From Shinella sp. CPCC 101442 (GTDB lineage: Bacteria; Pseudomonadota; Alphaproteobacteria; Rhizobiales; Rhizobiaceae), in the NCBI RefSeq assembly GCF_024704725.1, contig NZ_JALIQS010000004.1, positions 248,001-312,000 on the forward strand: a stretch of DNA of 64,000 nt. The letters are read 5' to 3'. The notes beneath the pieces are model-generated. The model did not search any database and was not told the origin of the DNA. It was given only the letters and a program-made list of their open reading frames with translations. The translations under genes were made by a program, and so were the position numbers. Every line of letters begins with the position of its first letter. The first letter of the stretch is position 1. Below, in pieces: positions 51,147 through 60,575 of the stretch.

Positions 51147-51968
51147 ATGTGCCGTTGGGCAGCCTATCGCGGAGAGCCGCTTTTCCTCGAGGAACTTGTA
51201 TCCTCGCCCGCGCACTCGCTGATCGAACAATCCCATTGCGCCACCCGCGCCAAGACGGCGACCAATGGCGACGGCTTCGGCATCGCCTGGTATGGCGAAC
51301 GTCCAGAGCCCGGCCGTTACCGCGATATCCTGCCGGCGTGGTCGGACTGCAACCTGCGCAGCATCGCGCGCCAGGTCCGCTCGCCGCTCTTCCTCGCCCA
51401 TGTGCGGGCAGCCACCGGCGGCGGCACGCGGCGCGACAATTGCCATCCCTTCGTGCAGGGCATCTGGTCCTTTATGCACAATGGCCAGATCGCCGATTTC
51501 GAGCATCTGCGCCGCCCGCTCGAAACGATGCTGGACAACGACCTCTACCACGCCCGCACCGGCTCGACGGATTCGGAGCTTCTCTTCCTGCTGGCGCTGC
51601 AGTTCGGCCTTGCCCGCGATCCGCTGGGCGCCATGGCCGAGACGATCGCCTTCGTGGAGCGCCTCGCCGCGCATCTGGAACGCCATGTGCTCGTACGCTT
51701 CACCGCCGCCTTCACGGATGGTCAGCAGCTTTATGCGGTGCGCTACGCCACGGACTACAAGGCCCCGACACTCTATGCCGCGCCGATGGGCGAGACGGGC
51801 GGGTACTGCCTCGTTTCCGAGCCGTTGAACGACGATACGGAAGCCTGGGTGGAAATTCCCGATGGCAGCGCCGTGGTGCTCGGCGAAAACGGCGTCGACG
51901 TGCGCATCTTCTCACCCGCCGGCCGGCCGGCAAGCGCCATGGACGCAAAGCTCAGCCTCGTCAGGTAA
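51147..51968 (+). CDS. Class II glutamine amidotransferase (YafJ/EgtC-like)
   Basis: A 273-residue Ntn-type glutaminase with catalytic Cys at residue 2 (MCRWAAYRGEP), exposed when Met is removed. NGDGFGIAWYG, HVRAATGG and HPFVQGIWSFMHNGQI are the glutamine-site motifs. EgtC in ergothioneine synthesis is a close fold relative, but no egt genes flank it, so the acceptor is unknown. It ends with an 8-bp overlap on the convergent coaBC gene. Confidence 0.9.
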   Translation: MCRWAAYRGEPLFLEELVSSPAHSLIEQSHCATRAKTATNGDGFGIAWYGERPEPGRYRDILPAWSDCNLRSIARQVRSPLFLAHVRAATGGGTRRDNCHPFVQGIWSFMHNGQIADFEHLRRPLETMLDNDLYHARTGSTDSELLFLLALQFGLARDPLGAMAETIAFVERLAAHLERHVLVRFTAAFTDGQQLYAVRYATDYKAPTLYAAPMGETGGYCLVSEPLNDDTEAWVEIPDGSAVVLGENGVDVRIFSPAGRPASAMDAKLSLVR

Positions 51969-53166
51969 GTCTTGCCGCGATCCAGTCGGCGAGACGACCC
52001 GCGACGTCGTCCTTGGCAAGCTCCGGCCATGCCTCGATGCCATCGGCCGTGATCAGCTTCACGCTGTTGCGCGTGCCGCCCATGATGCCGGTTTCCGGTG
52101 AGACGTCGTTGGCGACGATCAGGTCGGCGCCCTTCTTCTGAAGTTTGATCCGGCCGTTGCTTTCGACATCCTGCGTTTCGGCGGCAAAACCGACGACGAC
52201 TTTCGGACGCTTCTCGTGGTGTCCGACGGTCTTCAGAATGTCGGGGTTTTCCGCCAGCATCAGCGGCGGCGGGCCTTCGCCCGGCTGCTTCTTGATCTTT
52301 TCCATGTTCGGCGTTGCCACGCGCCAGTCCGCGACGGCCGCGACCATGACGGCGATATCCGCCGGCAGCGCGGACAACACGGCGTCCAGCATTTCCGAGG
52401 CGCGCTCGACATGGATGACCTCGACGCCCGGCGGATCGGCAAGCGTCACGGGGCCGGAGACGAGTGTCACGTCGGCACCGAGCCGGGCAAGGGCCGCCGC
52501 GATGGCGTGGCCCTGCCGGCCGGAGGAGCGGTTGGCGATGTAACGCACCGGGTCGATCGGCTCATGCGTCGGACCCGATGTGACCACGGCCTTGCGGCCG
52601 GAAAGCGGTTTGGCGCCATCCTCGAGCAGGCGCTCGGCTTCAGCGACGATCTCCAGCGGCTCGGCCATGCGGCCAAGCCCGGCTTCGCCGCTTTCCGCCA
52701 TCTCGCCGGCATTGGGGCCGATGAAGGTGAGGCCATCCTTGCGCAGCGTCTCGACATTGCGTCGCGTGGCCGGATGTACCCACATCTTCGGGTTCATGGC
52801 GGGCGCCACCAGAACCGGCCGGTCGGTGGCGAGCAGGATGGTGGAGGCGAGATCGTCGGCAAGGCCGTTGGCCATCTTCGCCATCAGGTCGGCCGTGGCG
52901 GGTGCGACGACGATGAGGTCGCAGTCGCGCGCCAGCCGGATATGCCCGACATCCTGCTCGTCCTCGCGCGAAAACAGCTCCGTATAGACATGACCCGACG
53001 ATAGCGCGCCGACGGCGAGCGGCGTCACGAACTGCTGCGCACCCGCCGTCATGACCGGCCGAACCTCCGCACCGCGCTCGCGAAAACGGCGGATGAGGTC
53101 AAGGCTCTTGTAGGCGGCGATGCCGCCGGAGATGACGAGGAGGAGGCGTTTTCCTGCAAGCGGCAT
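51961..53166 (-). CDS. coaBC: Bifunctional phosphopantothenoylcysteine decarboxylase/phosphopantothenate-cysteine ligase
   Basis: A 401-residue two-domain enzyme for two steps of coenzyme A synthesis. The N-terminal flavoprotein domain (about 1-180) has GGIAAYKSLDLIRR and PAMNPKMW, the decarboxylase signatures. The C-terminal ligase domain (about 190-400) shows TSGPTHEPIDPVRYIANRSSG and AAVADWR. I chose MPLAGKRLLLVI at 53166; earlier in-frame ATGs add only a few residues. Length is standard. Confidence 0.97.
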   Translation of the reverse strand: MPLAGKRLLLVISGGIAAYKSLDLIRRFRERGAEVRPVMTAGAQQFVTPLAVGALSSGHVYTELFSREDEQDVGHIRLARDCDLIVVAPATADLMAKMANGLADDLASTILLATDRPVLVAPAMNPKMWVHPATRRNVETLRKDGLTFIGPNAGEMAESGEAGLGRMAEPLEIVAEAERLLEDGAKPLSGRKAVVTSGPTHEPIDPVRYIANRSSGRQGHAIAAALARLGADVTLVSGPVTLADPPGVEVIHVERASEMLDAVLSALPADIAVMVAAVADWRVATPNMEKIKKQPGEGPPPLMLAENPDILKTVGHHEKRPKVVVGFAAETQDVESNGRIKLQKKGADLIVANDVSPETGIMGGTRNSVKLITADGIEAWPELAKDDVAGRLADWIAARLT

Positions 53167-53272
53167 GACGGATCCCGGGCTCATGAGGCACAAGACCGTC
53201 CCCAGACAGGACGGTCATCCCGTCCTACCCCGTTGCCGCGGCATTTCCAAGTCTCGGCCGGCGACGGACGTC

Positions 53273-53635: not shown

Positions 53636-54439
53636 TCAGGCCCCTTCGTCGGGAATATTGAGCACATGGCCGCAGGCCTTGCAGTGCACGGCATCGGCAT
53701 CATGGCGCGAAAGACCGCATTCAGGACAGGGGAATGTCACCTTGTAGGGTCGGACGATCGCTTGCGCGAGGCGCACGAAAAGCGAAATACCGACGATCAT
53801 CGTGACGATGGAGGTGAGTTTTCCGAGCGTGCCGGGCAGCGTGATGTCGCCGAAGCCCGTCGTCGTGACCGTCGCGACGGAGAAATAGAGCGCATCGACA
53901 AAACCCGCGAACCCTTCGGCGCCGTAGAAGAAGTTGGCGTAGACGAAGCCGGTGACGAGGAAGAGAAAGACGAGAAAGTTCACGCAGGCCTGGATGACGT
54001 CTTCCAGATAGCCATAGCCGAAGCGGCGCAAAAGCAATGTCACGAGCTTGCTCTGGCTGATCGACCAGATGCGCAGGACACGCAGGAAGGCGAAATTGTG
54101 CAACTGGTTCGGAAAGAGCAGCGTGCCGAGAATGACGATGTCCACCCAGGTCATCGGCCTGAGCGCCCAGTACCGCAGGTTCGGCGCAATCAGCGCCCTT
54201 GCGCCAAGCTCGAAGGCGATGACCGCCGCAATGGCATAGTCGAGGATGACATAGGCCGAGCCGGTGCGCAGATACGGCCCGGCGATGAAGAAAATCAACA
54301 CCACGATGTCGATGAACAGCATAGCAAGCTGAAACCGCACTGCCTCCCGGTCACGCCCGAAATAGAGCCCGCGCAACTGGCGGCGCGTCCGTTCGAGAAA
54401 GGATGGCGGTTCGGTTGCGATTAGCGGTTTGTCGATCAT
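53636..54439 (-). CDS. Potassium-channel-like ion transporter with C-terminal zinc ribbon
   Basis: A 267-residue protein with about six membrane segments, including an S4-like FAFLRVLRIW helix with spaced Arg. A pore loop with VATVTTTGFGDITLPG follows: the selectivity filter reads TTGFGD where potassium channels have T-x-G-Y/F-G-D. The C-terminus carries CPECG and CKACG, a four-Cys zinc ribbon after the last helix. Potassium selectivity is likely. The ribbon is unusual for this family and may sense metal or redox state. Confidence 0.85.
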   Translation of the reverse strand: MIDKPLIATEPPSFLERTRRQLRGLYFGRDREAVRFQLAMLFIDIVVLIFFIAGPYLRTGSAYVILDYAIAAVIAFELGARALIAPNLRYWALRPMTWVDIVILGTLLFPNQLHNFAFLRVLRIWSISQSKLVTLLLRRFGYGYLEDVIQACVNFLVFLFLVTGFVYANFFYGAEGFAGFVDALYFSVATVTTTGFGDITLPGTLGKLTSIVTMIVGISLFVRLAQAIVRPYKVTFPCPECGLSRHDADAVHCKACGHVLNIPDEGA

Positions 54440-54482
54440 GCCGAAAAGACTAGCGCCGGGCGGGTGCCGGTCAAGCGGCGTA

Positions 54483-57400
54483 TCAGAAGTTCGCTTTCAG
54501 CGTCGCAAGGAAGCTGCGGCGGGGGCCGGGAACGTCGAAGGCCATGTCGACATGGTTGTCGAAGATGTTGAGCAGCGTCAGGCCGAGTTCGAGATGCCCG
54601 GTTTGGGATTTCCAGGTCAGCGCCGCATCGGTCGTCGTATAGCTGTCGATATCGATGACGAAGGGGCCTGAGTCGAGATCGTAGCCCTGCACGCCCGTAC
54701 GCTCGCCGACAAAGGTCTGGGCGAGACTGAAGGTGATGCGCGACGGGTGCACATAAGTGAAGCCGACCTGCCCGACATAGTCGGGCACGAGAGGAACGGG
54801 GAGGTCCCCGCCGGTCAGGAAGGTCGTATCCTTGCTGTCGTACCAGGTGAAGGAGCCGAACAGCCCGAGCCCTTCGCCCACCCAGTAGTTGGCGCTGACA
54901 TTCACGCGATCGATTTCGCCGGTCGCTGTCTCGAACGCGCTTGCGAAGCCCGGAGCGCCGATGCTGGAGCCATCGAACGTGACATGCTGGTAGTCGAGCG
55001 AGGTGAAGAAGCGATCGCTCCACTCCGCGTCCCAGCGCACCATCGTCGTGTCTTTTTCACCCTGGATGAAGAGCGGAATACTCAGCGGCACAAGGCCGAC
55101 CGTGGAGACGGGCGAGAGCGTCTGGGTAACGGGATATTGCGTATCGCGGCGATAGGCGGCGCGCAGCCAGTGGTTTTCGACCGGCGTCCAGGCAATGCCG
55201 AAGCGCGGATCGACTTCTTCCAGCGTTCCGCTCTTCGAATCGAACCAGGAATAGTAGGCGCCAGCCTGAAGCTTCAAGTCGTTGGACACATCGAGTGTCG
55301 CATCGGCGTAGAGCCGCGCGGCGCGCCAGTCGGACGGGTAGCCGTATTCCGAGATAAGGTCGTCCGCCGGCCGGTTGAAATAGCGCGCGACGTTCCATGA
55401 GGTGCTGTCATACAGTTCCGCGCCGTAGCGCATCGTGAACGGGCCCACGCCAAAAAGGTGGCTTACGCCGCCACTCAGGCTTTTGGCCTCCGATGTCTGT
55501 TCGAACGTATACCCGCCGTCGCCTTCGGGATTGATATCCCAGTCGAAGCCTTCGTAGTGTTCGAGCGACGTGCTGTGTTCGTACATGGCGAAGGCCTGGA
55601 CGACGTTCTTTTCGGAAATCGTGTGGCTCCATCCGCCGCCGATCGTGTCGCCCTTGCTGGTCAAGGCATCGTTTGGCGTCGGGTAGAACAATTGCCCGGG
55701 ATAGCCGATGCGTGCCCGGTTGAGATGACCGAAGAGATAGACATTGTCCGCAAGCGTCGGGCGCAGGCCGAGCTCGAACGCCCCGCCTTCGAAATCGTTT
55801 CTGTCGTTCTCGCGCACGCTTTCCGGCCGGGAGATCTGGCCCATGAAATTGTAGCTGAGCGGGACGACGTCGTAATTGGTGCCGTGGAAGCTGACGTCGC
55901 CGTTCCAGCCGGTGACCCCGGGCTGGGCGGAAAAGCCGCCGATCACCGAGGTCTCGAAGAACGCCCGGCTTTCAATGGAGTTGGCGCGCTGCTGCGAGGC
56001 GACGCCGAGCGGATCGAGCAGGAAGTTCTGGATGTTGGTCGGCAGGAAGATCGAGCCCGAACCGTAGCGATAAAGGCCGCTCGGCGGCGTGACGACGAAC
56101 GGGCTGAGCTGGCCGGCGGACTGTTCGTCATCATAGCTGGCGGCCAGGAACGGATCGTAGGCGCGCGCCTTGTGGTACTTGCCCCATTCGTCCAGGCCGA
56201 GATTTTCCAGCGCGTCGCCGAGTACCGAGGAGGCCTGCCGGTGTACGTCATAGCCGGAATAGAAGCCGCCGCGTGCCTGGCGCCGGCGCAACCCCTCGCG
56301 CGCGTCGCGGATCGCATCGTCGGCGCGGAACTGGTCGATGGCGACACCCGCACGGATCATGGCGATCGAGGGATTGTCCTTGTCGAAGCGGTCGGCATTG
56401 TCGAGCGCCTGTTCGGTCTCCTGGACCGCGCCGCTCTGGTAGCTGGCAATGGCAAGGCCGATCAGCGCGCCGCCATAGGTCGGGTTGATGGCGGCGGCCT
56501 CGAGAAGAACCTTCTTGCCCTCCTCCGTCTTGCCCATGCGCAGGAGATAGCGCCCCTTGGCGGCGAGCACGGCATAGGTGTTGGGGTCCAGCGCCTCCGC
56601 CGCGTCCAGTTCGCGCTTCGCGTCCGCCATCTGTTCGTGGCCCATCAGGAAGAGCGCGTAGTTGGTGCGCACGGCGATGTTTTCGGGATTGAGCGCGACG
56701 GCGCGGCGGTGCGCCGCATCCGCCTCCATCGTGGCATCACGGTCGCTCTGGACGCCGGCGAGGTCGTCCCAGGCCGCGTCGTCGCCGGGGGCGATCTCGA
56801 TTGCGCGTTTCAGGTCGGCGAGCGCCCCGTCGATATCGCTCGAAATGACGGAGCGGTAGCGGGCGTTCGTTGTCAGATAGCCGACATCGTCAGGGTCGAT
56901 CGAGCGGGCACGGTCCAATGCCGCGCGGGCCTCGTCGCGCCGGTCGAGTTCGAGGGCAAGGCTCGCGCGCATCGCCGGCAGGCCGGCATCGTCCGGGAAC
57001 CGTTTCTCGGCCTGTGCCAGAAGGGCGATCGCGGCGGCCTGTCCCTGCAGATGCGCGACGACCGAAGCCTGCACGGAGGCTTCGCCGGGTGTGGCGGGCG
57101 TGCGGGTGAGATAGGCCGGCACCTTCTTCTTGTCGGGATAGGCGAGCGACGACGCGATCCATTCGCCATAGTCGGCCATCACGCGCCGCTCGCCGGAAAG
57201 CCGGGGCCGAGCCTCGCGGAAGAGGCGGATCGCATCGCCATAGCGCAGCGCATTGCCGGCGATCATGGCTTCTACCAGGACGGCGCGGGCCTCCAGCGCC
57301 GCGGGAAGGGGGCGCGGCAGATGCGAAAGCGCGTCTTCCGCCACCTGGCGGCCGTCGGCGGGCAGCGCCAGCTCGGCGAGCTTCAGCCAGTCCTCCCGGC

Positions 57401-58106
57401 TGCGCGAAGCCTCCGGCTTGTCGAGAAGCCGCCGCCTGTCGCCCCGCGCATCGATCGTATTCTCGCCCGAGATCGGCAACGTGATGAACATGCCGCGGAT
57501 CTCGCCATAGAGCAGTATCTGCTCGCGCTCTTCGAGATTGACGAGCACATATTTGCGGGGGGCCTCGCCAAGGGTCGCCACGGCGCCTTCGCCCTGGTTG
57601 ACGGTGACGCTGCCATGGGCGTTGCTGAGTTCGACCGTACCTTCGAGCACGGTGAGCGTGGTGCGGGTGCCGTTCGTGTTGAGTGCCCAGTCGGTGCCAC
57701 GAATGGCGGCTGCCGCGGCAGGGGTGTCGATCACGATACCACTGCCGCCGCGTTGGGCGCGGCCCCAGATCGTGCCGCCCTCGAGGTTCAGCAGGCTGTC
57801 GGAGGTGCCGTCGATCTTGCGCACGCGCAATACCGTCTCGCGCGCCATGCGCACCAGCGTGTTATCGGCAAAGCGGATGGCGAGGCTACCCAATGCATTG
57901 GTGCGCAGCGTGTCGCCGGCCAGCAGGTCCTGGTTGACTTCGACGCCCTGCCAGTCCTTGGCCTCGACGAACTGGACTTCTTCGCCGCTTTTGCGCTCGA
58001 CGACGGCACCATCCGCGGTGGAGGCGCGCGGGAGCACATCGGCAAAAGCCGGCACGACACCCCCAACGAACGCCAAGGTGGCAACGCCCAGTCTCAAAGC
58101 ACGCAT
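54483..58106 (-). CDS. FecR-TPR-beta-barrel outer-membrane protein
   Basis: A 1207-residue exported protein with a Sec signal (about 1-22) and three regions. Residues about 50-185 form a FecR domain (LLAGDTLRTNALGSLAIRF, IDTPAAAAAIRGTDWAL, TVLEGTVEL). Residues about 240-640 carry several TPR units (for example AHRRAVALNPENIAVRTNYALF). Residues about 690-1207 show alternating strands of a large beta-barrel, ending RSFLATLKANF like TonB-dependent receptors, and no plug domain is seen. No ECF sigma, FecI or TonB gene is near, so the FecR part is not an anti-sigma signalling partner here. TPR plus barrel recalls export porins such as BcsC or PgaA. Substrate unknown. Confidence 0.8.
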   Translation of the reverse strand: MRALRLGVATLAFVGGVVPAFADVLPRASTADGAVVERKSGEEVQFVEAKDWQGVEVNQDLLAGDTLRTNALGSLAIRFADNTLVRMARETVLRVRKIDGTSDSLLNLEGGTIWGRAQRGGSGIVIDTPAAAAAIRGTDWALNTNGTRTTLTVLEGTVELSNAHGSVTVNQGEGAVATLGEAPRKYVLVNLEEREQILLYGEIRGMFITLPISGENTIDARGDRRRLLDKPEASRSREDWLKLAELALPADGRQVAEDALSHLPRPLPAALEARAVLVEAMIAGNALRYGDAIRLFREARPRLSGERRVMADYGEWIASSLAYPDKKKVPAYLTRTPATPGEASVQASVVAHLQGQAAAIALLAQAEKRFPDDAGLPAMRASLALELDRRDEARAALDRARSIDPDDVGYLTTNARYRSVISSDIDGALADLKRAIEIAPGDDAAWDDLAGVQSDRDATMEADAAHRRAVALNPENIAVRTNYALFLMGHEQMADAKRELDAAEALDPNTYAVLAAKGRYLLRMGKTEEGKKVLLEAAAINPTYGGALIGLAIASYQSGAVQETEQALDNADRFDKDNPSIAMIRAGVAIDQFRADDAIRDAREGLRRRQARGGFYSGYDVHRQASSVLGDALENLGLDEWGKYHKARAYDPFLAASYDDEQSAGQLSPFVVTPPSGLYRYGSGSIFLPTNIQNFLLDPLGVASQQRANSIESRAFFETSVIGGFSAQPGVTGWNGDVSFHGTNYDVVPLSYNFMGQISRPESVRENDRNDFEGGAFELGLRPTLADNVYLFGHLNRARIGYPGQLFYPTPNDALTSKGDTIGGGWSHTISEKNVVQAFAMYEHSTSLEHYEGFDWDINPEGDGGYTFEQTSEAKSLSGGVSHLFGVGPFTMRYGAELYDSTSWNVARYFNRPADDLISEYGYPSDWRAARLYADATLDVSNDLKLQAGAYYSWFDSKSGTLEEVDPRFGIAWTPVENHWLRAAYRRDTQYPVTQTLSPVSTVGLVPLSIPLFIQGEKDTTMVRWDAEWSDRFFTSLDYQHVTFDGSSIGAPGFASAFETATGEIDRVNVSANYWVGEGLGLFGSFTWYDSKDTTFLTGGDLPVPLVPDYVGQVGFTYVHPSRITFSLAQTFVGERTGVQGYDLDSGPFVIDIDSYTTTDAALTWKSQTGHLELGLTLLNIFDNHVDMAFDVPGPRRSFLATLKANF

Positions 58107-58139
58107 GAAATAGTTGATCGTTCACCCTCGAAGGCGACG

Positions 58140-58182
58140 ATATGGGTGCAATTGTTTGGCGTTGTCAACGATGGGCGACAAC
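58140..58182 (-). promoter_or_regulatory. Promoter with overlapping inverted repeat before the FecR-TPR-barrel gene
   Basis: On the minus strand, TTGACA (58168-58163), a 17-bp spacer and CCATAT (58145-58140) form a promoter with a perfect -35 and a weak -10. GTTGTC (58161-58166) and GACAAC (58177-58182) form an inverted repeat that overlaps the -35, a plausible operator. The element lies about 34-76 bp before the ATG. Confidence 0.55.
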
Positions 58183-58186
58183 CGCG

Positions 58187-59761
58187 TCAGCCGAGTTTCC
58201 AGGCGATGTAGACGAGTGTTGCAGCAATGACCCAAAGCGCGATGCGCCCCGATCTGCCATGGCGGGCCTCCGAACGGCCGATGGCCTCGGCGGTATCCGC
58301 ATCGAAACGCAGCCCTTTTTCGGCCATCGATGTCAGGTCCTGCGAGAATTTCTCGGCCTTGGCGGCGATTTCGGGGGCGGCTTCCGCAAGGCGCAACGCG
58401 GCATGCGCACCGTCGCGCAGGTCGGTCAACAGGCGCTTCGGTCCCAGATTGTCCCGGATCCAGTCGCCGACGACCCCTTCGGAAGCTTTCCACATGTTGA
58501 AGCGGGGGTTCAGCGTGCGCGACACGCCTTCCACCACGACCATGGTCTTCTGCAGCATGACGAGTTCGGTGCGGGTTTCCATGTCGAAAAGCTCCGTCAC
58601 CTCGAAGAGTAGCGTCAAGAGCTTGGCCATGGAGATCGTCTCGGCCGGCTGGCCGTGGATCGGCTCGCCGATGGCGCGGATCGCCTGGGCGAAGCTCGCG
58701 GTATTGTGGTGGGAGGGCACGTAACCCGCCTCGAAATGCACATTGGCGACGCGCTGGTAGTCTCGCGTGATGAAGCCGTAGAGGATTTCCGCGAGGAAGC
58801 GGCGTTCTTTCTTGCCCAGTCTCCCGACGATGCCCATGTCGACCGCGACGACGACGCCCTCAGGGTCGACGAAGAGGTTGCCCTGGTGCATGTCGGCATG
58901 GAAGAAGCCGTCGCGCAGCGTGTGGCGCAGGAAGGACTGGATCAGCGTGTCGGCGAGCTTGTCCAGATCATGGCCGGCGGCGCGCAGGCCCTCGACATCC
59001 GACATCTTGATGCCGTCGATCCATTCCATCGTGACGACGTCGCGGCCGGTGCGCTCCCAATCGACTTTCGGAACACGGAATCCGGGGTCGCCGCTGGTGT
59101 TTTCGCCGAGTTCGGAAAGGGCAGCGGCCTCCAGCCGGAGATCCATCTCGACCTTGGTCGTCTGCTCCAGCGTGCGCGTCACCTCGACGGGCTTCAAGCG
59201 GCGCGTGTTGGGCAGGATCTTCTCCTGCAGATGTGCGGCGGCATACATCGCCTCGAGGTCATGGGCGAAGCGCTGACGCACGCCGGGACGGATGACCTTG
59301 ACCGCCACCTTGCGCTCGCCAGTGGCATCGCGCACCGTCGCGGGATGGACCTGGGCGATGGAAGCGGCCGCGACCGGATCGCCAAAATCCGCATAGAGAT
59401 CGTCGAGCGTCCGGCCGAGCGACCCTTCGACCGTCGCCACCGCCGCCGCGCGCGGAAATGTCGCCATGCGGTCCTGAAGGGCGGAAAGCTCGACGGCGAT
59501 CTCGGCGCCGACGACGTCGGGGCGCGTCGCCAGAAACTGGCCCATCTTCACATAGGAGGGGCCGAGGCGCTCGATGGCGCGGGCAAGCCGGTCGCCCCGG
59601 TCTTCACGCGACGCCTTGCGACGCTCGAGGAGGCCGGCGAATGCGTGCGCCGTGCGGGCGAGCGGCGGCATGCCCTCGGTCGGCAGCGCCGAGACGACGC
59701 CCTCGCGCACGAGAACCCAGCCCACGCGGGCGAGGCGAAGATAGGCGCCGATGACACTCAT
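58187..59761 (-). CDS. ubiB: UbiB-type ABC1 kinase-like protein of ubiquinone synthesis
   Basis: A 524-residue atypical kinase required for ubiquinone synthesis. The UbiB hallmarks are GPSYVKMGQFLATRPD (KxGQ), the Ala-rich loop AAASIAQVHPA, FFHADMHQGNLFVD (catalytic loop) and VDMGIVGRL (metal-binding). A C-terminal membrane segment (IALWVIAATLVYIAWKLG) follows. The start MSVIGAYLRL lies 37 bp after ubiE. The two form an operon. Confidence 0.96.
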   Translation of the reverse strand: MSVIGAYLRLARVGWVLVREGVVSALPTEGMPPLARTAHAFAGLLERRKASREDRGDRLARAIERLGPSYVKMGQFLATRPDVVGAEIAVELSALQDRMATFPRAAAVATVEGSLGRTLDDLYADFGDPVAAASIAQVHPATVRDATGERKVAVKVIRPGVRQRFAHDLEAMYAAAHLQEKILPNTRRLKPVEVTRTLEQTTKVEMDLRLEAAALSELGENTSGDPGFRVPKVDWERTGRDVVTMEWIDGIKMSDVEGLRAAGHDLDKLADTLIQSFLRHTLRDGFFHADMHQGNLFVDPEGVVVAVDMGIVGRLGKKERRFLAEILYGFITRDYQRVANVHFEAGYVPSHHNTASFAQAIRAIGEPIHGQPAETISMAKLLTLLFEVTELFDMETRTELVMLQKTMVVVEGVSRTLNPRFNMWKASEGVVGDWIRDNLGPKRLLTDLRDGAHAALRLAEAAPEIAAKAEKFSQDLTSMAEKGLRFDADTAEAIGRSEARHGRSGRIALWVIAATLVYIAWKLG

Positions 59762-59798
59762 GCGAAAAGGCACTGCTTGGGGAGGGGACGAACCATGT

Positions 59799-60575
59799 TC
59801 AGAGCTTCCAGCCCGAATGCAGCGCGGCGATGCCACCCGTGTAATTGGTGTAGCTCACGCGCGAAAACCCGGCGGCGCGGATCATCGCGGCGAAGTCTTC
59901 CTGATTGGGGAACTTGCGGATCGATTCCACGAGATACTGATAGGGCTCGGCATCGCCCGTGATCATCTTGCCGAACTGTGGGATCGCGTTGAACGACCAG
60001 GCGTCATAGACCTTGTCGAGCAGCGGCATTTCCACCTCGGAGAATTCCAGCACCAGGAGGCGGCCGCCGCGCTTCAGCACGCGATAGGCTTCCGACAGCG
60101 CGACATCGATGCGCGGCACGTTGCGGATACCGAAGGCGATCGTATAGGCGTCGAAACTGTTCGCCTCGAAGGGCAGGTCTTCGGCATTAGCCTCGACGAA
60201 GTCGAGATTGGCGGAAAGGCCCTTCTTGGCGGCGCGGTCGGCGCCCACGCCGAGCATCGAGCCGTTGATATCGAGCACGGTGGAATGGGCCAGGCGGTCG
60301 GAGGCCTCGATGATGCGGAAGGCGATGTCGCCCGTGCCGCCGGCAACATCGAGCGTCCGGTAGGACGCATCCTTGCGCGGGTTGAGGCTTGCGATCATCG
60401 CGTCCTTCCAGACCCGGTGCAGGCCGGCGGACATGACGTCGTTCATGATGTCGTAGCGCTTGGCGACCTTGTGGAAGACGTCGTTGACGAGCGCCTGCTT
60501 TTCGCCCTCGCGAACCTCGCGAAAACCGTAGGAGGTTGCCATGCCGCCGTCTGCGGATGTGCGCTGTTCCGTCAT
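59799..60575 (-). CDS. ubiE: Ubiquinone/menaquinone methyltransferase
   Basis: A 258-residue SAM-dependent C-methyltransferase in ubiquinone synthesis. [15 protein letters not shown] is SAM motif [33 protein letters not shown] is the UbiE signature; the end reads [12 protein letters not shown]. Several in-frame Met codons exist; I chose [11 protein letters not shown] at 60575, as those further upstream extend past the usual N-terminus. It leads ubiE-ubiB and is divergent from mutM. Confidence 0.95.

What the first reader, a model, noticed from the sequence alone, without database searches (positions are those of the whole stretch)
54483..58182. FecR-TPR-beta-barrel protein of 1207 residues without a FecI/TonB context
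Seen: one frame joins an exported FecR domain, a long TPR array and a large C-terminal beta-barrel with a terminal aromatic residue, preceded by its own promoter. Known: FecR proteins normally relay signals between a TonB receptor and an ECF sigma factor, while TPR plus barrel proteins such as BcsC and PgaA export polysaccharide. Inference: here the FecR fold may be a periplasmic ligand or cell-wall sensor fused to an export or uptake barrel. It sits between ubiB and coaBC, which from memory are neighbours in many rhizobia, so it may be an insertion in this lineage.
Basis: partly seen in the sequence, partly recalled or inferred. Interest (0 to 1): 0.65.

Follow-up and report, generated by a model that had tools for sequence, protein, structure and literature searches.

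The report
Orphan NsrA-type outer-membrane signal receptor
This large gene encodes a relative of NsrA, an outer-membrane sensor that lets root-nodule bacteria perceive outside signals and make cyclic AMP; here it sits apart from its usual partner enzyme, yet the two occur in the same genomes of the genus.

Summary
The 1207-residue frame is real and intact (minus strand, 54483-58106): signal peptide, FecR domain, TPRs, and a barrel related to TonB receptors but without a plug, ending in Phe. The architecture is not new: it is a full-length homologue (about 38% identity) of Sinorhizobium meliloti NsrA, the reported outer-membrane receptor that works with the CHASE2 adenylate cyclase CyaK. In 19 of 19 full-length members found outside Shinella in an order-wide sample, a CyaK-like cyclase follows directly. 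The window's copy belongs to a Shinella/Sinorhizobium clade without that linkage. It fills the site between ubiB and a channel gene in 7 of 21 Shinella genomes; 14 sites are empty. Yet a CyaK orthologue, always on another contig, occurs in exactly the 10 of 21 genomes that carry a window-type or NsrA-type gene. Best reading: an orphan NsrA-type receptor that signals through TPR/FecR to CyaK and cAMP. Ligand and coupling are untested; structure prediction failed on FecR and barrel. New member of a known kind, with a split-but-co-inherited twist. A PycTM gene beside 15 of those 19 receptor-cyclase pairs is the boldest loose end.

The parts
54483..58106 (-). gene for the 1207-aa NsrA-family protein (P0001)
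   Evidence: homologues
58041..58106 (-). signal peptide, residues about 1-22
   Evidence: read by eye (Arg in the n-region, hydrophobic core, Ala-Phe-Ala); no signal-peptide program was run
57630..57914 (-). FecR domain, residues 65-159
   Evidence: Pfam PF04773, E 1.5e-14
56307..57452 (-). TPR solenoid, about residues 219-600
   Evidence: Pfam TPR matches 357-600; helices from about residue 219 in the model, pLDDT mostly 54-82 up to about residue 465, lower beyond
54486..56039 (-). linker end and C-terminal barrel of TonB-receptor type without plug, about residues 690-1207
   Evidence: PF00593 at 786-1180; family profile against the PDB; closure not shown
58140..58168 (-). promoter-like TTGACA-N17-CCATAT
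   Evidence: present in 7 of 7 Shinella copies at this site; not called by the sigma-70 scan
58187..59836 (-). ubiB, left border of the insertion site
   Evidence: ABC1 kinase-like, E 9.5e-69; in 21 of 21 Shinella genomes
53636..54439 (-). ion-channel gene, right border of the insertion site
   Evidence: Ion_trans_2, E 1.4e-12; follows ubiB directly in 14 of 21 Shinella genomes
51961..53193 (-). coaBC (context)
   Evidence: DFP and Flavoprotein domains

Best explanation
An NsrA-family signal receptor that has left its cyclase operon. Shown here: homology to NsrA over the whole length, the same domain order, a barrel related to TonB receptors with no plug match, a gene that sits as a single insertion, a place in the tree next to cyclase-linked relatives, and co-occurrence in Shinella with a CyaK orthologue on another contig. 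Inferred: the barrel shows fast-changing loops that bind an outside ligand; binding is passed through the TPR solenoid and the periplasmic FecR domain to the CHASE2 domain of the inner-membrane cyclase CyaK (perhaps also to the CyaD1-like cyclase encoded beside a Crp-type regulator); cAMP then acts through a Clr-like regulator. In this strain it would stand in for the nsrA gene that is missing beside cyaK.
For: Full-length match to S. meliloti pSymB copies at 37-39%, one annotated nsrA with cyaK next to it; NsrA has FecR then TPRs in the same places. 19 of 19 full-length members outside Shinella have a CyaK-like cyclase (51-64% identical to CyaK) at once downstream on the same strand (CHASE2 plus cyclase domains checked by Pfam in two). 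The window clade (12 rows) is sister to a cyclase-linked clade, support 100/100. Shinella: receptor gene and CyaK orthologue both present in 10, both absent in 11 of 21 genomes; both traits need 3 changes on a rough species tree. Conservation falls from FecR to barrel: 58, 41, 29% against NsrA and 92, 78, 49% against the S. curvata orthologue. Reported role of NsrA with CyaK and CyaD1/D2: PMC7529298 (abstract and passages), PMC13001267 (passages).
Against: No direct evidence of coupling in Shinella. P0001-type genes alone do not match cyaK exactly (9 of the 10 cyaK genomes; 4 changes on the tree against 3); the exact match needs the NsrA-type gene of G010 to be counted. The Fisher value is not corrected for kinship, and the species tree has weak nodes (47, 53, 69) and is built on genes beside the insertion site. 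P0001 is not the NsrA orthologue: Shinella G005, G010 and G011 hold closer NsrA relatives (53-54%), so ligand and partner may differ. The barrel and FecR folds were not modelled.
Confidence: 0.68

Rival explanations
1. It is an NsrA-type receptor, but its partner is not CyaK: for instance the 614-aa CyaD1-like CHASE2 cyclase, or an unknown periplasmic protein.
For: No cyclase beside the gene. The 614-aa class, with a Crp-type regulator and a FecR gene beside it in the own genome, is present in 19 of 21 Shinella genomes. NsrA itself is reported to serve CyaD1/D2 as well (PMC7529298).
Against: The 614-aa class does not follow the receptor's distribution, the CyaK class does. All 19 linked cyclases outside Shinella are CyaK-like.
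Confidence: 0.15
2. It is mainly a channel or transporter: a TonB-receptor-like barrel with TPRs used for uptake or export, the FecR domain only anchoring or gating it.
For: Barrel profile matches TonB receptors; TPR-barrel exporters such as BcsC and PgaA exist (recalled); the own-genome paralogue lies in an iron-siderophore uptake locus.
Against: No plug (0 of 21 members at E 0.001); PgaA model reached only over a TPR stretch, 25.6 bits against a cut-off of 366.65; linked genes in the family encode signalling enzymes.
Confidence: 0.1
3. It is a sigma-factor regulator of the FecR kind.
For: FecR domain; the own-genome paralogue is close to an ECF sigma factor, and in G001 its counterpart is next to one.
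Against: P0001 is exported and has no DUF4880 part; the iron locus of the paralogue already has its own DUF4880-FecR protein; no sigma factor among the neighbours of P0001 scanned.
Confidence: 0.03

Closest known systems
NsrA of Sinorhizobium meliloti, receptor partner of CyaK
   Same: Length, signal peptide, FecR at 65-160, TPRs, acidic C-terminal barrel ending in Phe, alignable from end to end at about 38%.
   Different: No cyclase or PycTM gene beside it; a separate clade; barrel only 29% identical; ligand unknown; not from a tested nodule symbiont here.
FecR-domain outer-membrane protein plus TPR protein plus CHASE2 cyclase clusters of Campylobacterota (PMC9239204, passages)
   Same: FecR, TPR, outer membrane and CHASE2 cyclase as parts of one proposed pathway.
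   Different: There FecR and TPR lie in separate genes, with a phosphodiesterase; here they are one protein and the cyclase is unlinked. Sequences were not compared.
TonB-dependent receptors (FhuA, FecA)
   Same: Barrel strands of the C-terminal part match by profile.
   Different: No plug, no STN match, FecR and TPRs in front.
BcsC and PgaA-type TPR-barrel exporters
   Same: TPR array followed by an outer-membrane barrel (recalled for these proteins).
   Different: No family match beyond TPRs; FecR domain; signalling neighbours in the family.

Membership tests
NsrA family | End-to-end sequence homology to NsrA | tested here: met
   37-39% over 98-100% of the protein; alignment
NsrA family | Signal peptide, FecR, TPRs, C-terminal barrel in this order | tested here: met
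   FecR in 21 of 21 members scanned; barrel by profile only
NsrA family | CHASE2 cyclase gene directly downstream | tested here: not met
   ion-channel gene downstream; cyclase on another contig. I treat this as usual context, not as a defining feature
NsrA family | Presence of a CyaK orthologue in the genome | tested here: met
   L089, 64% identical to CyaK
NsrA family | Perceives a signal and activates cAMP synthesis | not testable with these tools
   needs a bench test
NsrA family | Orthologue rather than paralogue of NsrA | tested here: not met
   separate clade; closer NsrA relatives exist in Shinella G005, G010, G011
FecR anti-sigma regulators | Cytoplasmic DUF4880 part and one membrane helix before FecR | tested here: not met
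   no DUF4880 match and an N-terminal signal peptide
TonB-dependent receptors | Plug domain inside the barrel | tested here: not met
   no Plug in P0001 nor in any of 21 members at E 0.001
TonB-dependent receptors | Related barrel | tested here: met
   PF00593 E 1e-11; PDB profile matches
BcsC/PgaA exporters | Family match at the curated cut-off | tested here: not met
   PGA_TPR_OMP 25.6 bits against 366.65; no BcsC-type barrel model listed

The most novel reading that the evidence does not exclude
NsrA-type receptors, CyaK-type cyclases and PycTM proteins form a three-part envelope alarm: a fast-evolving outer-membrane receptor senses a protein ligand or a phage at the surface, the CHASE2 cyclase makes a cyclic nucleotide, and a PycTM (Pycsar-effector-like) protein acts on the membrane. 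A PycTM gene lies beside the receptor-cyclase pair in 15 of 19 loci outside Shinella and beside cyaK in 6 of 10 Shinella genomes. The window's gene would be an interchangeable sensor that moves as a single gene and serves in place of the missing local nsrA.
Probability: 0.1. Interest if true: 0.75.

Novelty: new member of a known kind. Interest (0 to 1): 0.38.

Why it matters
It puts a striking three-domain protein into a family with a reported role, and shows that such a receptor can leave its cyclase operon and still occur in the same genomes as the cyclase. That makes the receptor-cyclase link testable outside the nodule symbiosis and offers receptors with different loops for finding what NsrA-type proteins sense. 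The fall in conservation from FecR to barrel suggests FecR as the partner-facing part, a testable role for FecR domains away from sigma factors.

Tried and rejected
A crude count of amphipathic segments on the family alignment gave 29, too loose to fix a strand number. The idea of a FecI-coupled paralogue (L056/L060) weakened when the own-genome locus proved to hold its own DUF4880-FecR. The sigma-70 scan gave no promoter; conservation did, but a pattern search did not find the same element before the copies in G011, G005 and three Sinorhizobium plasmids, nor before S. meliloti nsrA. PADLOC gave no match for P0001; its PycC matches for the cyclases lie in the shared cyclase domain only. Barrel acidity like NsrA's (64 acidic to 33 basic residues; NsrA 80 to 40) says little, since most of the 21 members are acidic there (pI 4.3-5.7). 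Class-wide search: 2 of 385 genomes, own included, with a match at E 1e-60. Literature: no paper in the open-licence library for 'FecR domain' with tetratricopeptide, outer membrane and Rhizobium, for DUF5706 with adenylate cyclase, for Pycsar with CHASE2 or for Shinella with NsrA. The original NsrA paper (Garnerone 2018) is not held; I know it by recall and through papers that cite it.
Full report
WHAT IS THERE. It opens with a signal peptide (by eye), then FecR (65-159), TPRs (Pfam stretches 357-600; predicted helices from about residue 219) and a C-terminal barrel (PF00593 at 786-1180) with terminal Phe. No Plug, STN or DUF4880 match was listed. The profile of 21 family barrels matches 19 distinct PDB sequences at E up to 1: FhuA forms (best 5.2e-5), a TonB-dependent receptor, YncD, a PQQ transporter, OprC and FecA, over the C-terminal strands. 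Taken one by one, only 2 of 21 members reach E 0.001 for PF00593, while FecR is found in 21 of 21 and Plug in none. Both AlphaFold jobs failed on barrel and FecR, so closure and strand number are not shown.

WHAT IT IS. A tblastn search of plasmids found 88 records, 84 of them matching over at least 80% of the protein; 67 are Sinorhizobium. S. meliloti pSymB copies align from end to end at 37-39%. One is annotated nsrA, with cyaK directly after it and a DUF5706 protein divergently before it; I equate DUF5706 with PycTM because the matching proteins of other loci hit Pfam PycTM. NsrA has the same Pfam order as P0001. Published work (PMC7529298, abstract and passages) calls NsrA an outer-membrane receptor needed with CyaK for perception of signal 1, with a ribosomal uL2 protein as candidate, and with CyaD1/D2 for signal 1'; PMC13001267 (passages) repeats this.

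THE FAMILY. In an order-wide sample of 397 genomes, 20, own included, hold a full-length member (570 bits or more; only two candidates per genome were scored, so this is a lower bound; the many weaker matches are mostly TPR stretches). In 19 of 19 outside Shinella a CyaK-like cyclase follows at once on the same strand. In 15 of 19 a PycTM homologue lies within about 220 bases upstream, 5 on the same strand and 10 divergent; none was found in the other 4. CHASE2 plus cyclase domains were checked by Pfam in two, PycTM in two. In a class-wide sample 2 of 385 genomes, own included, match at E 1e-60. The tree of 37 members puts the window's protein in a clade of 12 without adjacent cyclase, 9 from Shinella and 3 from Sinorhizobium megaplasmids (support 100/100), sister to a cyclase-linked clade; the label needs 3 changes in all. 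Loss of linkage is the simpler reading, but the root is a midpoint. Three further Shinella copies (G005, G010, G011) are closer to NsrA (53-54%) and also unlinked. The own-genome paralogue (L056) and its G001 counterpart (L060) are on long branches whose place is unsure.

THE SITE. All 21 Shinella genomes have ubiB. In 14 the ion-channel gene follows it directly; in 7 the receptor gene stands between them, its ATG 81-84 bases after the last sense codon of ubiB (the empty-site distances run from 25 to 100, the value for G014 being off because its match starts at residue 5). TTGACA-N17 (N18 in G007)-CCATAT precedes all 7, and a GCTTGACC...GCTAGTCT-like stretch before the channel gene is kept in filled and nearly all empty sites. 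This is a clean single-gene insertion or, less likely, repeated loss. G005 and G011, which hold the nearest relatives (82-83%), have the gene elsewhere and an empty ubiB site; those two copies resemble each other only over the gene and about 200 bases around it. The gene therefore seems to move alone.

THE PARTNER. The own genome has two CHASE2 proteins: L089, 64% identical to CyaK, and L090, a 614-aa cyclase beside a Crp-type regulator and a FecR gene, the same neighbours as reported for S. meliloti clr-cyaD1-SMc02177 (PMC5498481, passages, with gene numbers). Across the genus 19 of 21 genomes have a CHASE2 protein. The CyaK class (63-66% identical to CyaK) is in exactly 10: those with a P0001-type gene (9) or an NsrA-type gene (3, two of them shared). 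One search counts 11 of 21 genomes with a match; I dropped G020, whose only match is a weak TPR stretch. G008 has another CHASE2 protein (43% over about half of CyaK), not counted. The table is 10, 0, 0, 11 (Fisher one-sided 2.8e-6), not corrected for kinship. On a four-gene tree with some weak nodes both traits need 3 changes; P0001-type alone needs 4 and matches 9 of the 10. Receptor and cyaK are on different contigs in all 10. PycTM beside cyaK is complete in 6 of 10, cut short in the own genome, and not seen in the short flank of 3; a genus-wide Pfam search finds the same 6 of 21. In Sinorhizobium, 8 of 8 records with a P0001-type gene (53-57% identity) also carry cyaK, but cyaK is common there, and the 4 loci I fetched have an intact PycTM-nsrA-cyaK order, so there P0001-type is a second receptor.

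HOW IT PROBABLY WORKS. Conservation falls from FecR over TPR to barrel: 58, 41, 29% against NsrA; 92, 78, 49% against the S. curvata orthologue; 58, 43, 34% mean pairwise over 21 members. That fits a conserved periplasmic output face and a fast-changing outer surface. The inferred chain is ligand, barrel, TPR, FecR, CHASE2 cyclase, cAMP, Clr-type regulator. Everything after family membership is inference.

VERDICT. New member of a known kind. Unusual are the split but co-occurring receptor and cyclase and the moving single gene. A comparable set of parts around CHASE2 cyclases in Campylobacterota is in print (PMC9239204, passages). For the PycTM linkage I found no paper in two searches of the open-licence library, which does not prove that none exists.

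Noticed in passing
L061-L063, L065-L067, L069, L070, L072, L073, L075-L079; L092; L172-L175: A PycTM (DUF5706, Pycsar-effector-like) gene lies beside nsrA-cyaK pairs: 15 of 19 loci outside Shinella, S. meliloti, and 4 of 4 further Sinorhizobium loci fetched. Its part in the pathway is unexplained.
   Followed up: partly
L089 980-1483 (own genome, beside cyaK): The own genome keeps only a cut-short PycTM stretch (matching about residues 3-73) next to its cyaK gene; 6 of 10 Shinella cyaK loci have a complete one.
   Followed up: partly
L160 1130-12989 (own genome, other contig): A second FecR-TPR-barrel paralogue (33% identical to P0001) stands before an STN-type TonB receptor, a siderophore-type ABC importer, an ECF sigma factor and a classical DUF4880-FecR.
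   Followed up: partly
L088 6704-8134: Shinella G011 has a 476-aa barrel-only homologue of the C-terminal part (32% identity; TonB-receptor barrel E 2.7e-14), near a contig end.
   Followed up: no
window 55458-58211, + strand: A 917-aa open frame runs antisense to the receptor gene; probably a by-product of high GC, but unusually long.
   Followed up: no
window 54000-58000: GC is about 61% over the barrel part and 67-68% over the TPR-FecR part of the same gene.
   Followed up: no
L080/L162 and L081: In Shinella G011 and G005 the 82-83% orthologue lies at other sites, alike only over the gene and about 200 bases around it; what moved it is unknown.
   Followed up: no
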